Assembly (NCBI RefSeq): GCF_000969905.1
Contig: NZ_CP009520.1
Span: 2,542,001 to 2,606,000 of the forward strand
Source: Methanosarcina vacuolata Z-761
Lineage (GTDB): Archaea > Halobacteriota > Methanosarcinia > Methanosarcinales > Methanosarcinaceae
Direction of reading: 5' to 3'
DNA length: 64,000 nt
The notes under the pieces are model-generated. The model worked only from the letters and a program-made list of their open reading frames with translations, searched no databases and had not been told where the DNA came from. The position numbers were made by a program, and so were the translations under genes. Positions 1,576 through 7,478 of this stretch are shown one piece after another; position 1 is the first letter of the stretch, and every line of letters begins with the position of its first letter.

Positions 1576-2100
1576 TTAGTCCACAGGCATATAGTTTGCC
1601 TCGATAACTTCACCCTCTTTCATTTCTCTTTGTCTTCCGAACAAATTCTTTGTGGTGAACACGATCCATCTCCAATGGAGTGCAATGTGGGCAACAAAGA
1701 AAACCAGCATCAGGATTCCAACTTTATCATGGATCAAACTCAAGATTTGGCCTGCTGCATGGTGGTTGAAGAACATTATAAGACCTGAATAACCAACCAA
1801 GGCAAATTGAACGAAAAATGCCAGGTCTACGAGATAGTTGAGTTTTACTTTTCTCGACTTTTTGATTTGTTTTTCTTTTCTGAAAAAGTTCTTTGTGGTG
1901 AACACGATCCATCTCCAATGGAGTGCAATGTGGGCAACAAAGAAAACCAGCATCAGGATTCCAACTTTATCATGGATCAATCTTAAGAGTGAACCTGCAG
2001 AATAGCGATTGAAATACATTATAAGACCTGAATAACCGACCAAGGCAAATTGAACAAAAAGTGCCAGGTCTACTAGATAGTTGAGCTTTATTTTTTTCAT
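1576..2100 (-). CDS. DUF4405-type membrane protein with internal tandem duplication
   Basis: A 174-residue integral membrane protein made of two nearly identical halves of about 81 residues. Each half has the sequence LVDLA.FVQFALVGYSG followed by IHDKVGILMLVFFVAHIALHWRW: two membrane helices with the His residues (I-H-D, A-H-I, L-H-W) typical of the DUF4405 / cytochrome b561-like fold. Four helices together would make one heme-binding bundle, so the gene probably arose by doubling a two-helix unit. The first ATG follows a GGAGGGAGGAAATG-type Shine-Dalgarno. Over 92 bp (1646-1737 and 1889-1980) the two halves are identical in DNA, so the duplication is recent or is kept alike by gene conversion. 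Function is unknown; an electron-transfer membrane cytochrome is an inference. Confidence 0.8.
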   Translation of the reverse strand: MKKIKLNYLVDLALFVQFALVGYSGLIMYFNRYSAGSLLRLIHDKVGILMLVFFVAHIALHWRWIVFTTKNFFRKEKQIKKSRKVKLNYLVDLAFFVQFALVGYSGLIMFFNHHAAGQILSLIHDKVGILMLVFFVAHIALHWRWIVFTTKNLFGRQREMKEGEVIEANYMPVD

Positions 2101-3149
2101 TTCCTCCCTCCTTTTTAATATTTACAGCGACATTTTTGTAAGATTATCAATTTCAGTCCGTTTGATTGATTTTCGTTTTATTGATTTTTGCTTCACGAAC
2201 CGTTTACATAGCGGTTCTGCTGTTCTCCAATGACTGCTGTGCGCTCCCTTAATTGGCAGAAAAAGAAATAAATATACTTGCAAAAAATAGACGTAAATAG
2301 AGGTTTACTTTCAATTTAAAAGTTAAAAAACTCATTTATTTGCAAATAAAACTTAATTAGTGCATATTTTTCATAATCTAAAAACTTTTAACCTATGTTT
2401 CTTAATTGTCTGTTTAATAAGAACCAGAAATTAAGGGGAAGGAAAAAAACTTTCCAGAAGATGAAATACTCCCAGAATTAAGTTAAAATCAGGTTAATTC
2501 TTGTTGGGCACTCATGAATATCCTCTTTCCTGAATGCAGGACTCCTTACTTCATTACCGTTGATAGGAATAGTAAACACAGAGTATTACTTAAATAAGCC
2601 TTCTCTGATTTTTTTTAGAAAAAGATTAGACCTAATGAGTAAAACTTGAATGTAAATAAAAAATTAATTATATGGGGAAGTTTGGGATTTCGTAGTGGTC
2701 GCTTTCACTATGTCTTCATATATATAACTTTTGCAAATACTTTTTAATGAGCTATTCCAGATTTAGCTATTCCATTTTTAACGACTCCATTTTTAGCTAC
2801 TCCAGCTTTCAAGCATGTCCTGTTAGCTCGGGCATGTATCTAAAAAAATCAGATGAGTACTGGAAAATCCTTGCCTTTCAATCTCAGGTAAAATTCCGAA
2901 ACTGGGGCAAAGTCCTGAAAAATAACACTCTAAACCCTAGTTTTGTCGAAGAAAACGGCTTCTATGAAAGGTCTGAAGATTTTTTGAGAAGACCCCCTAG
3001 CAAATAATACTTTACTGAGATTTAATTTTTTACTTAAAATGCAATTAAAGATTAAATTCAATAACTAACGCCTAGAAAAGCTTCATTGATAAATTAATTC
3101 CGTATATCTCCTATTTTTGCTAAGTATGCTTTTATTATTAAATGCAAAT
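2101..3149. other. long intergenic region, no convincing gene
   Basis: AT-rich sequence upstream of the DUF4405 gene. An 86-codon frame at 2747-3007 begins with a small 15-bp tandem repeat (encoding SYS-type residues), has no ribosome site and resembles nothing I know. I treat it as doubtful. Nothing else stands out before the structured stretch starting at 3150. Confidence 0.5.
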
Positions 3150-3445
3150 GAAGGAGATGACTGCCTTCTCCTAGAAACTGACAGGTAAGGTATCTGCATC
3201 TAGCAGATACCTTTAATCCTGTACGGCTCAATGGGAAAGAAGCAAATAGAAACAGGATACCTCGCCACTCTTAGCGACCATTAGATCAACACAAAAGTTC
3301 ACCATTGAGAAGCGATAGAAGGGAGCAGTCAAACCTACACTCCAGAAAATGAGGCACTATGCAGCTTGCAGGTGCCTCAAAAACGAAGATCGATTTAAAT
3401 CCTACTCCATAGATGAGGCACTGTGCAGCTCGCAGGTGCCTCAAA
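3150..3445. ncRNA. candidate structured RNA with possible pseudoknot and twin hairpins
   Basis: A dense set of perfect helices can be drawn: AGGAGA/TCTCCT (3152-3157 with 3167-3172), an 11-bp stem AAGGTATCTGC/GCAGATACCTT (3187-3197 with 3203-3213), ATCCTGT/ACAGGAT (3216-3222 with 3252-3258), and CTCAATGG/CCATTGAG (3227-3234 with 3302-3309). The last pairs the loop of the third helix with a downstream segment, so it would form a pseudoknot. ACAGG at 3181 competes with the copy at 3252 for CCTGT. Two 28-nt hairpins follow, GAGGCAC...GTGCCTC at 3351-3378 and 3415-3442, both followed by AAAAACG. No reading frame fits. Strand is unknown; it could be a free RNA or a leader for the transporter operon starting at 3646. 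Confidence 0.4.
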
Positions 3446-3645
3446 AACGCATACCACTAAACGCATATCACTATTATCCGTTACTAATCCTGTAATTCAA
3501 GAAGGACAGTTAAATAACAGTAAAACTTGAGTACAGTATAAAAAAGATAATTATGTGCCCTAAGATTCGATGATTCAGGCAGATATGAACAAAATCAAAA
3601 TTAATCCGACAACTCTGAAGCATGAACATGGTTTAGAGGGTATGT

Positions 3646-4620
3646 ATGACGCTTATCAAGATCATAGAGATATTTAAAAAGAAATTAAATACCTCAATTT
3701 TAAAGCCACTTGAGAAAGCAGCAGATTTCTACAGTGAATCGAAGAATGATTCCAATATAAATGGTCCAGGGGGGTTCAAGAAAAATAGCCCTTACGGCAG
3801 TCCAGCCCGTAATTTTGCTAAAAGTCCTGATTCAGGGAATGCCTCCAGGAACGTAGAGATTCCATTTATCAAACTGACCGATGTCTGGAAAATTTATCAG
3901 ATGGGGGAAGTTGAGTTTGCGGCTCTTAAAGGAATAAACCTTGAGATTTATGAAGGGGAGCTCCTTGTAATCCTGGGCCCCAGTGGAAGTGGAAAAAGCA
4001 CGCTTATGAATTTGCTGGGCTGTCTGGACATGCCATCAAAAGGTACTGTTTGCCTGAATTCTAAAGACATCTCAGAACTAAGTGAATCCGAACTCGCCGT
4101 CGTCCGAGGACAGATGATTGGCTTCATATTCCAGAGCTTTAACCTCCTTCCAACCCTGAATACGGAAGAAAACGTGCTTTTACCTATGGAATTCCAGGAA
4201 GAGGATCGAAAAACAGCCCGACAAAAAGTCTCATATCTGCTTGAAATTGTCGGACTCTCAGATAAGAAAAAGAACCTTCCATCACAGCTTTCAGGCGGAC
4301 AGAGGCAGAGAGTTGCAATAGCTCGCTCCCTCGGTGTAAACCCGCCCATAATCCTGGCAGATGAGCCTACAGGAAACCTGGACAGTAAAACAGGAGATTA
4401 TATCCTGGATTTTCTGGATGGGCTGCAGAAACGTGAAGGTAAGACGATCATCATTGTAACACATGACCTTGAACTTGTAAAATATGCAACAAGAATTGTG
4501 TACATCCGAGACGGCGAGATTGAAAAAATAGAAACACATCCGAAAAACGAACAAAGTATGAAAAACGAACAAAGTATGAAAAATGAACGAGGTACGAAAA
4601 ATGAAATAAATCTAAATTGA
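3646..4620 (+). CDS. ABC transporter ATP-binding protein, MacB/LolD type
   Basis: Cytoplasmic ATPase that powers the FtsX-type permease encoded two genes downstream. All ABC motifs are present: Walker A GPSGSGKS (residues 111-118), signature [10 protein letters not shown], Walker [13 protein letters not shown] and the switch histidine in VTHD. The ATPase domain starts only near residue 75; the preceding 70 residues form a polar, unstructured extension not usual in LolD/MacB ATPases. The C-terminus carries a short repeat ([18 protein letters not shown]). The ATG at 3646 follows AGAGGG. It is nine bases upstream of the CARDB-type gene, so the three genes form an operon. The substrate is unknown; MacB-type systems export peptides, macrolides or lipoproteins. 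Confidence 0.9.
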
Positions 4621-4629
4621 GGAATTAAA

Positions 4630-6102
4630 ATGAAGAAGTGCTCTTTACTAATATTTTTACTGCTGTTTTCAGCGTTCACATATCCTGAGGCTGGGACTGC
4701 GCTTGCCTCTAATGGGGATATAAAGTCCGCATCTCTGGAAGTAAACCTGGCTAAACAGAACCCTGATGCTGCCCGTCCTGGAGAACCTGTTGAACTCACT
4801 ATCAGCGTGCAAAATGTAGGAAACACTGACCTGAAAGACATTGCTGTCACAGTTAACCCTGAATATCCTTTCAGTAAGGTTTCCGGAGAAGACCTGACAA
4901 AAAAAGTCTCCTACCTGAATGCACGGCAGGATGATGACGATGCAGCAGTCCTTAAGTTCAAGCTTATGACAGATGCCAATGTTTCAGAAGGCACATATGA
5001 TATCGATATTACCACCACTGCTAAAGAAAGCGGGTCCTCATTAAACACGATTACTACTACAAAAACCGTCCAGCTTGAGGTAAGGGGTAAAGAGTACGCG
5101 CAGATTGTTACCATAAACAAAGCAAGCATTGACCTGGCACAGGAAGAACCTCTGGAATTCATAATAACAAATACCGGAAACTCACCTCTGAAAAACATGG
5201 TAGTTTCCTGGAAAGACCCAAAAGGGGTAATTCTGCCAGTATATTCGGATAATACAAAGTACATCAAGTACCTGGCTGCAGGTGACTCCGTAACCGTATC
5301 TTACTCTGTAATGGCAGATGTAAACGCAGACCCTGGACTCTATACTCTGAATGTAGACCTCAAATTTGAAGACTATGAATCGAATGAGAAAAGCATTGCT
5401 ACCACAGCAGGGCTTTTCGTTGGTGGGAAAACTGATTTTGATGTTTCTTTTTCAGAAAGCGACCAGGGAGAAGTTTCCCTTTCAGTTGCAAATGTGGGCA
5501 ACAACATGGCTTATTCCGTGAAAGTTTCAGTCCCTGATCAGGACGGTTACAGGGTATCAGGAAGCTCTTCAACGATTGTTGGAAACCTTGAGAAAGGGGA
5601 CTATACAATTGCATCTTTCAATGTTGTGAGCATACAGAGTCCTGGAGGTGCTGAAAGTGGAGGAACACCAGGGGTTGCAAGAGCAAGCGAGAAAGACGAA
5701 AATGTGACTTCCACGGTTTCCAATCCCCTGAAAGTCCAGATTGAATATACGGATGCAAGAGGGGAAAGAGTAACGGTTGATAAGGAAGTAGAACTCGAAA
5801 CGACTACCGGGAATGTAACTGCACAGGGACGAGGAAGGATAGGAGCGGCAGGTAACAGCAGTGTATTCAGTTCATATCTGATTTATATTGTTTTAATAGC
5901 GGTCGCAATAGCAGGTTTATTCGTTTACCGCAGAAAAAAACAGGCCGAAAACGAGAAAAAATCCGGAAATAAAAAGTCTGAAGACCAGAAGCACGGCTCA
6001 GGAACAGGTGCAGGGACAGGTGCAGGGACAGGTGCAGGGACAGGTGCAGGGACAGGTGCAGGGACAGGTGCAGGGACAGGTGCAGAGACAATTAGAGATT
6101 GA
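4630..6102 (+). CDS. secreted CARDB/NEW3-type (COG1361) surface protein, membrane anchored
   Basis: A 490-residue protein with an N-terminal signal peptide (about residues 1-26), three or four immunoglobulin-like repeats of the COG1361/CARDB kind (AARPGEPVELTISVQNVGNT, EPLEFIITNTGNSPL, SLSVANVGN), a single membrane helix near residues 415-435 and a basic cytoplasmic tail. The tail ends in a run of about eight GTGA tetrapeptides encoded by a 12-bp tandem repeat (about 5999-6090), a likely source of length variation. It sits between the ATPase and permease genes, and the ribosome site is GAGGAATT. It probably takes the place of an extracytoplasmic adaptor or substrate-binding partner of the MacB-like exporter; that role is inferred from gene order. 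Confidence 0.8.
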   Translation: MKKCSLLIFLLLFSAFTYPEAGTALASNGDIKSASLEVNLAKQNPDAARPGEPVELTISVQNVGNTDLKDIAVTVNPEYPFSKVSGEDLTKKVSYLNARQDDDDAAVLKFKLMTDANVSEGTYDIDITTTAKESGSSLNTITTTKTVQLEVRGKEYAQIVTINKASIDLAQEEPLEFIITNTGNSPLKNMVVSWKDPKGVILPVYSDNTKYIKYLAAGDSVTVSYSVMADVNADPGLYTLNVDLKFEDYESNEKSIATTAGLFVGGKTDFDVSFSESDQGEVSLSVANVGNNMAYSVKVSVPDQDGYRVSGSSSTIVGNLEKGDYTIASFNVVSIQSPGGAESGGTPGVARASEKDENVTSTVSNPLKVQIEYTDARGERVTVDKEVELETTTGNVTAQGRGRIGAAGNSSVFSSYLIYIVLIAVAIAGLFVYRRKKQAENEKKSGNKKSEDQKHGSGTGAGTGAGTGAGTGAGTGAGTGAGTGAETIRD

Positions 6103-6233: not shown

Positions 6234-7478
6234 ATGAGAAACTCAACGTACCTGAAAATGGGTCTGAACATGCTTGTGCATAGCAAGCTCCGAAGCTGGC
6301 TGACCATTATTGGAATAGTTATAGGGATCGGATCTGTTGTTGGCATCCTTTCCCTTGGAGATGCTATGCAGGAACAGGTGCAGAGCAGGCTCGCCGAAAT
6401 GGACCTGACGAAGATAACCATAAGTCCGGGGTATACCAAAGCGTCATCCAACATGCCTGGCCCTCCTGGGATGAGGGGTTCATCAACAGATGCTGAATTA
6501 ACAGATGATGACATCGAGGCTCTCCATGGCCTGGATGGAATACAGTACATAGCAGGAGATATTTCCGGCAGTGAATCAGTGATTTACGCAGCGCAAAATG
6601 CAACTCTCTCAATTACTGGTGTGGATCCTCAGGTCTGGAAGTACATGACTACCCTGAAAACACAATCCGGAAGATTGCTTGAACCGGCTGATAAATATGT
6701 TGCAGTTATAGGAAGCGGGGTTGCAAGTGGAATTTATGACCAGGAAATAGGGGTCAATCAGGTAATAACTGTAAACGGTAAAGCCGTACGCGTTGTCGGC
6801 ATCCTGGAAGAAGAAGGTGGACGTGGAGACCGAAGCATTTACATGCCGATCGATGGGGCAGTAAACCTGCTTGATGACGCAGAAGAAGGTGTTTATGATA
6901 GCATCACGGTGAAAACCAGGAGTGAAGATCTGGTTGATGAACTGATGGAAGATATCGTGGATAAACTCATGGTTTCAAGACACATTATTCAGGAAGATGA
7001 CAGGGATTTTTCAGTGACAGCTTCTAAATCGATGGCCGAGTCTGTTACCGAAATGACGAGTTCAATGACCCTGTTTCTTGGAGCTATTGCAGCCGTATCC
7101 CTGCTTGTAGGAGCCGTCGGGATTGCAAACACGATGTTTACCTCTGTCCTGGAAAAGACAAAGGAGATCGGGACCATGAAAGCCATTGGGGCAAAAAACA
7201 TGGATATACTAATGATTTTCCTCTTTAATTCCGCAATGGTTGGCCTTGTTGGTGGTATCCTGGGAGATATTCTTGGAGCATTTGTTTCAACTCTCTTCCC
7301 TATGCTGGGTCTACAAATGATGCGAGGAGCAAGTTCAGGTTCTTCAGAAATTTATTTTGCTCCTGACCTGATGGCTTTCGGGCTTCTACTGGCAGTTTTA
7401 ATAGGAGTAATCTCAGGAATCGTCCCTGCATACAGGGCTTCAAAGTTAAAACCAGTAGATGCACTGAGATACGAATAA
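6234..7478 (+). CDS. ABC transporter permease, MacB/FtsX type
   Basis: A 414-residue permease with MacB architecture: one membrane helix after the conserved N-terminal phrase MLVHSKLRSWLTIIGIVIGI, a large extracytoplasmic MacB_PCD-type domain (about residues 40-265), then three FtsX helices. The phrase EKTKEIGTMKAIGAK before helix 3 is the family's coupling motif, and the protein ends with YRASKLKPVDALRYE, the standard MacB terminus. It works with the ATPase at 3646. Together with the CARDB-type protein, it is likely to move a substrate outward across the cytoplasmic membrane. No TolC-like partner is expected in an archaeon. Confidence 0.92.
   Translation: MRNSTYLKMGLNMLVHSKLRSWLTIIGIVIGIGSVVGILSLGDAMQEQVQSRLAEMDLTKITISPGYTKASSNMPGPPGMRGSSTDAELTDDDIEALHGLDGIQYIAGDISGSESVIYAAQNATLSITGVDPQVWKYMTTLKTQSGRLLEPADKYVAVIGSGVASGIYDQEIGVNQVITVNGKAVRVVGILEEEGGRGDRSIYMPIDGAVNLLDDAEEGVYDSITVKTRSEDLVDELMEDIVDKLMVSRHIIQEDDRDFSVTASKSMAESVTEMTSSMTLFLGAIAAVSLLVGAVGIANTMFTSVLEKTKEIGTMKAIGAKNMDILMIFLFNSAMVGLVGGILGDILGAFVSTLFPMLGLQMMRGASSGSSEIYFAPDLMAFGLLLAVLIGVISGIVPAYRASKLKPVDALRYE

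What the first reader, a model, noticed from the sequence alone, without database searches (positions are those of the whole stretch)
3150..3445. Candidate new structured RNA with pseudoknot and duplicated hairpin
Within 300 bases there are at least four perfect stems of 6-11 bp, one of which (CTCAATGG/CCATTGAG) links the loop of another to a distant segment, plus two near-identical 28-nt hairpins with the same AAAAACG tail. ACAGG occurs twice and could pair with the same CCTGT, giving mutually exclusive folds like a switch. No ORF explains it, and it is 200 bases before an exporter operon.
Basis: partly seen in the sequence, partly recalled or inferred. Interest (0 to 1): 0.7.

Follow-up and report, generated by a model that had tools for sequence, protein, structure and literature searches.

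The report
Structured RNA leader of archaeal exporter
Ahead of an ABC exporter operon, this Methanosarcina genome carries a strongly folded RNA of about 230 bases whose shape is kept in most species of the genus and in a sister genus; it is probably a new, undescribed control element built into the start of the exporter's messenger RNA.

Summary
Window 3158-3378 folds far better than shuffled sequence (z -4.9). The same element recurs in 22 of 31 Methanosarcina genomes and in 3 of 4 genomes of a second genus of the family. Of 28 genus loci checked, 26 lie just upstream, same strand, of homologues of the same ABC ATPase gene; the others are an orphan copy and a copy fused to an exporter remnant. 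The window's own genome has a second copy, upstream of a paralogous exporter. Rfam has no match, even permissively.

The fold is nested: closing helix P1 at the predicted 5' end, hairpin P2, arm P3 with a conserved CCUCGCCAC loop, then a conserved linker and hairpin P4 (duplicated here). Helices persist although their sequences change between clades; the tree-aware test is positive but moderate (9 compensatory changes against 3.5 expected, P about 0.006).

Best reading: a new family of cis-acting leader RNA controlling a MacB-type exporter. Its promoter motif also precedes an ArsR-like regulator gene with its own structured leader, which suggests a two-operon regulon. What it senses, whether it switches, and even its transcription are unshown.

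The parts
3119..3151 (+). Conserved promoter block GCTAAGTATGCTTTTATTATTAAATGC.. (TATA-like TTTTATTATTAAAT at 3130-3143); predicted start of transcription near 3157-3160
   Evidence: nearly identical in all 26 aligned leaders and in the second genus; start site inferred from the usual archaeal TATA-to-start distance, not measured
3158..3164 (+). P1 5' strand UGACUGC, at the predicted 5' end of the RNA
   Evidence: pairs with 3325-3331; P1 core paired in 97.5% of cells over 28 leaders, one A-U to G-C double change
3325..3331 (+). P1 3' strand GCAGUCA
3181..3222 (+). P2: ACAGG 3181-3185 / CCUGU 3218-3222 stacked on the 11-bp hairpin 3187-3213
   Evidence: minimum-energy fold; G-C to A-U and C-G to U-A changes in clade A; equivalent hairpin in clade C
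3227..3309 (+). P3 arm: CUCAAUGG 3227-3234 / CCAUUGAG 3302-3309
   Evidence: helix kept with different sequences in clades A, B and C; arm-swap test
3259..3268 (+). Conserved single-stranded motif ACCUCGCCAC inside P3
   Evidence: alignment A1: kept in nearly all leaders of clades A, B and C; altered or lost in L011, L012, L013, L014 and L020
3332..3350 (+). Conserved linker AACCUACACUCCAGAAAAU between P1 and P4
   Evidence: among the most conserved columns
3351..3378 (+). P4 hairpin GAGGCAC..GUGCCUC with AAAAACG tail
   Evidence: outer helix paired in 95.4% of cells over 28 leaders
3415..3442 (+). P4', tandem duplicate of P4
   Evidence: 95% over 37 nt; present only in part of clade A
3635..3639 (+). 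Predicted ribosome-binding site AGAGG before the ATG at 3646
   Evidence: conserved UUUAGAGG upstream of the start codon in nearly all leaders
3646..4620 (+). ABC ATPase of MacB/LolD type, first gene of the operon
   Evidence: Pfam ABC_tran 8.7e-33; homologue downstream of 26 of 28 genus leader loci
4630..6102 (+). Exported protein with NEW3/CARDB repeats
6234..7478 (+). MacB/FtsX-type permease
   Evidence: MacB_PCD 7.5e-35, FtsX 7.1e-21

Best explanation
The element is a cis-acting structured 5' leader RNA of a MacB-type ABC exporter operon. It is a new RNA family restricted, as far as searched, to Methanosarcina and one sister genus. Transcription probably starts around 3158, so the first bases form the 5' strand of P1, which closes a junction holding P2 and the P3 arm; a conserved linker and hairpin P4 follow, and the transcript runs on for roughly 140-380 bases into the ATPase gene. 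Because the smallest natural versions keep only P1, linker and P4, the likely working core is that unit. My best guess is that it governs stability or translation of the exporter mRNA by guarding the 5' end and offering a binding site for a protein, with P2 and P3 as accessory parts. Shown by sequence comparison: the fold, its conservation, its linkage to the exporter, the shared promoter motif. Inferred: transcription, start site, cis action, protein binding. The confidence is for 'conserved structured cis leader'; for the protein-binding/5'-guard mechanism I give about 0.35.
For: Fold z -4.9 here, -5.2, -2.4 and -4.4 in a clade-B, a clade-C and a second-genus leader, each closed by P1 or a close equivalent. 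28 leaders aligned: P1+P4 paired in 92.8% of cells against 27-43% with slid partners; clade A 88.8% against 35-45%. P3 arms pair better with their own clade's partner (0.87-0.97) than with most others (0.47-0.85). Tree-aware count: 9 compensatory changes against 3.5 expected, P 0.0055. Linkage: 26 of 28 genus loci lie upstream of the same ATPase family, same strand, plus all three second-genus loci. Covariance model R1: 22 of 31 genus genomes and 3 of 4 in a second genus. No terminator-like site and no long T tract between P4 and the start codon. Minimal versions L013 and L014 keep promoter, P1, linker and P4 only.
Against: No RNA data: neither transcript nor start site was seen. No single helix is significant by itself in the tree-aware test; P1 has only one double change. 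Exporter paralogues without the leader exist (for example G000:C2:1323944), and two leader copies lack an intact exporter (L093, L095). No consistent pairing with the ribosome-binding site was found.
Confidence: 0.75

Rival explanations
1. A bistable leader (riboswitch-like or kinetic switch): the 5' segment GACUGC pairs either with a proximal GAGCAGUC (P1') or with the distal GCAGUC (P1), and a signal tips the balance to change exporter expression.
For: In clades B, C and others P1' keeps standard pairs in 94.4% of cells against 8-51% when slid, while P1 keeps 97.5%. In clade B the A-to-G change in the 5' strand is matched in both partner strands. The gene behind is an exporter, as with several known riboswitch classes.
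Against: P1' is absent from clade A, including this copy. The tree-aware test finds no clean compensatory event for P1'. In the second genus the A-C mismatch sits in one or the other pairing. The middle is deleted in L013 and L014, so no indispensable aptamer is seen. No ligand is suggested.
Confidence: 0.2
2. An independent small RNA made from its own promoter that acts in trans and merely sits upstream of the exporter.
For: It has its own promoter-like block and a compact fold; M. mazei makes sRNAs from intergenic regions, for example sRNA162 (PMC3510493). An orphan copy exists (L093).
Against: 26 of 28 genus loci stay directly upstream of the same gene family on the same strand, and paralogous duplication carried leader and gene together. 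No terminator-like signal follows P4.
Confidence: 0.15
3. A DNA-level control region or decayed mobile element; the inverted repeats are protein-binding sites or remnants, not RNA.
For: The promoter block and about 120 bases upstream are also conserved, and the same promoter motif precedes a regulator gene.
Against: P1 spans about 170-250 bases in full-length copies, helices vary in sequence while keeping pairing, and they sit downstream of the TATA-like box. The element is not a dispersed repeat: only two loci in the genome. No transposase was seen linked to it.
Confidence: 0.07
4. A leader peptide or attenuation ORF.
For: A short frame ATG AAG GAG ATG ACT GCC TTC TCC TAG stays open in many leaders.
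Against: The start codon is missing in L023, L024 and L093, the frame is broken in L021 and L024, lengths vary from 8 to about 70 codons (sequences), and the ATG would lie before the predicted start of transcription.
Confidence: 0.05

Closest known systems
sRNA162/sRNA171 of Methanosarcina mazei (PMC3510493)
   Same: Structured RNA of a Methanosarcina intergenic region, duplicated, known only from the genus, near ArsR-type regulator genes and upstream of another gene
   Different: 191 nt with three stem-loops and a 39-nt single-stranded linker, lies upstream of MM2442 (conserved protein of unknown function, not described as an ABC ATPase), acts in trans. Ours has a long-range closing helix P1 and stays linked to an exporter. 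Direct sequence comparison was not done
ROSE-type RNA thermometers upstream of bacterial ABC transporter genes (PMC11342760, PMC12857270)
   Same: Structured leader before an ABC transporter gene
   Different: By title and abstract these are bacterial elements; no Rfam match here and no consistent masking of the ribosome-binding site
Candidate cis-regulatory RNAs found by comparative genomics (PMC2864571)
   Same: Conserved fold upstream of a gene family, compensatory changes, ligand unknown
   Different: No Rfam family matches, so none of those deposited there is this one

Membership tests
cis-regulatory leader RNA (general kind) | conserved secondary structure supported by compensatory changes | tested here: met
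   (moderate on the tree: 9 against 3.5, P 0.0055)
cis-regulatory leader RNA (general kind) | constant position upstream of one gene family, same strand | tested here: met
   26 of 28 genus loci and three in a second genus
cis-regulatory leader RNA (general kind) | is part of the mRNA and changes its expression | not testable with these tools
   no RNA or reporter data
riboswitch | conserved ligand-binding core plus expression platform | tested here: inconclusive
   CCUCGCCAC loop conserved, but the whole middle is absent in L013 and L014; no consistent platform found
riboswitch | binds a small molecule | not testable with these tools
   needs biochemistry
any Rfam 15 family | covariance-model match | tested here: not met
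   0 at gathering threshold over the window; 0 at E up to 5 over 3100-3650
sRNA162/171 | located upstream of MM2442-type gene, 191 nt, three stem-loops with 39-nt single-stranded linker | tested here: not met
   downstream gene is an ABC ATPase and the architecture differs; sequences not compared directly
RNA thermometer | melting hairpin that masks the ribosome-binding site | tested here: not met
   no common partner of the AGAGG site across 26 leaders

The most novel reading that the evidence does not exclude
A two-member archaeal regulon in which an ArsR/HTH_20-type regulator and a MacB-type exporter share one promoter type, and both mRNAs begin with long leaders that fold their own 5' end into a closing helix; in most clades the exporter leader could flip between two mutually exclusive helices, making it a switch of a class not yet described in archaea.
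Probability: 0.2. Interest if true: 0.75.

Novelty: new member of a known kind. Interest (0 to 1): 0.55.

Why it matters
To my knowledge few structured cis-regulatory RNAs are documented in archaea. This one lies in a genetically tractable methanogen genus, is conserved over about two dozen species and a second genus, and sits before a defined exporter operon, so leader-based control in methanogens can be tested directly with reporter fusions and RNA probing.

Tried and rejected
Rfam at strict and permissive thresholds: nothing. Masking of the ribosome-binding site by P4, the linker or the ACCUC loop: partners differ from species to species. Intrinsic terminator after P4: none. Leader peptide: frame not conserved (sequences). 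Pseudoknot via the second ACAGG: no excess over shuffles. Sense of strand: the reverse strand folds about as well (z -4.45), so the + strand is chosen from the promoter block and the gene orientation. Dispersed repeat: only two places in the genome. A first tree-aware covariation script gave P 0.39 because ties at the root were broken differently for the two columns; it was replaced. Literature searches for a described Methanosarcina leader or sRNA at this gene found none in the open library; the original M. mazei dRNA-seq paper was not among the results, so prior detection as an unnamed sRNA or long 5' UTR cannot be excluded.

Full report
Observation. The stretch is intergenic and folds far below dinucleotide shuffles (z -4.89). 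Inside it lie P2 (3181-3222, containing the 11-bp hairpin) and P3 (CUCAAUGG 3227-3234 with CCAUUGAG 3302-3309), whose interior carries ACCUCGCCAC. After P1 come a linker and hairpin P4 (3351-3378), which is repeated at 3415-3442. In this fold everything nests; there is no pseudoknot.

Relatives. The window's genome has a second copy at C2:1328482-1328843, upstream of a paralogue of the same ATPase gene. A DNA search of 60 genomes found the element in 22 of them, all in the genus. A covariance model of the 3' part (R1) finds it in 22 of 31 Methanosarcina genomes and, in an even draw of 150 genomes of the order, only in that genus and one other genus of the family, where 3 of 4 genomes match. 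The second-genus loci keep the promoter block, P1, P4 and the downstream ABC ATPase. Over all 28 genus loci examined, 26 lie directly upstream of the ATPase gene. Two exceptions are informative: L093 is an orphan copy with no exporter behind it, and L095 is a copy fused by deletion to the end of an ATPase gene. Some exporter paralogues have no leader.

Structure across relatives. Twenty-eight leaders were aligned (A1). P1 and P4 keep standard pairs in 92.8% of cells against 27-43% with slid partners. In clade A, which holds the window copy, the whole structure keeps 88.8% against 35-45%. In the other clades P2 and the inner P3 helix keep 72.5% against 27-41%. P3 has three sequence versions (CAAUGG/CCAUUG, UACAAUGG/CCAUUGUA, AAACGGG/CCUGUUU); arms taken from different clades mostly pair worse than arms from the same clade (the P3 register was set by hand). 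A tree-aware count of compensatory changes gives 9 against 3.5 expected, P 0.0055, with no single helix significant alone. I regard the structure as well supported by energy, persistence and variation together, and the covariation itself as moderate. Leaders L013 and L014 have lost P2 and P3 entirely, so P1, linker and P4 are the core.

Surroundings. A 30-base block with a TATA-like sequence, GCTAAGTATGCTTTTATTATTAAATGC, precedes the RNA at constant distance and places the start of transcription at P1 by the usual archaeal spacing (general knowledge). Scanned over a large genome collection, the motif is found in Methanosarcina records at two kinds of place: before this leader, and before a gene for an ArsR/HTH_20-type regulator. 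On several contigs the two lie a few kilobases apart. The regulator's own mRNA would begin with a leader closed by an extended helix (GUCAGGAAC.../...GUUCCUGAC plus a variable, still-paired extension), with z -4.28 in this genome. The exporter is an ABC ATPase, an exported NEW3/CARDB-repeat protein and a MacB/FtsX permease.

Mechanism. No terminator-like site lies between P4 and the ATPase start, so the RNA is most simply the start of the exporter mRNA. Pairing with the ribosome-binding site was computed for 26 full leaders and shows no common partner, which argues against simple translational masking. In clades B, C and some others the 5' segment can also pair with a nearer GAGCAGUC (P1'), mutually exclusive with P1 and kept at 94.4%. 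That would make a switch, but the clade with the window copy lacks it and the tree-aware test found no clean compensatory event. I therefore place a protein-binding or 5'-end-guarding leader first, a bistable switch second, a trans-acting sRNA third.

Known or new. No Rfam family matches. The nearest described Methanosarcina RNA found, sRNA162/171, differs in gene context and architecture. The element is a new family of a known kind, a cis-acting leader RNA, pending transcript evidence.

Noticed in passing
L067 1500-1800 (G000:C2:3194075); also L094, L113, L115, L118, L124, L125, L132, L135, L136, L153, L160: The same promoter motif precedes an ArsR/HTH_20-type regulator gene whose leader is closed by a long helix starting at its predicted 5' end (GUCAGGAAC../..GUUCCUGAC); the helix extension varies between species and stays paired. 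Points to a regulator-exporter regulon.
   Followed up: partly
L095 (G022:C21:299000-301800): A leader copy whose 3' half, together with the start of the ATPase gene, is deleted, fusing the leader to the end of the ATPase gene.
   Followed up: no
L093 (G008:C1:1986491-1986790): An orphan leader copy with promoter, P1 and P4 but no exporter behind it; the next gene is on the opposite strand.
   Followed up: partly
window 3000-3118: About 120 bases upstream of the TATA-like block are conserved across the genus (TTTACTGAG..., ATTAAAGATTAAATT, AAAAGCTTCATTGATAAATTAATTC), perhaps operator sites of the shared regulator.
   Followed up: no
L032 2857-2893; equivalent places in L026, L030, L031: Clades B and C carry another long hairpin (GGTCTAATTGG../..GATTAGACC type) between P4 and the ATPase gene, where clade A has the duplicated P4.
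   Followed up: no
G000:C2:1323944 (L034, L064): A tandem paralogue of the exporter ATPase, 5 kb from the second leader copy, that lacks the leader and its promoter block.
   Followed up: partly
window 5990-6100: The exported protein ends in a run of short Gly/Ala/Thr-type repeats (GAGTGAGTG...), open in other frames too.
   Followed up: no
window 1576-2100: A minus-strand ORF made of two near-identical halves (DUF4405/cytochrome b561-like), an internal duplication.
   Followed up: no
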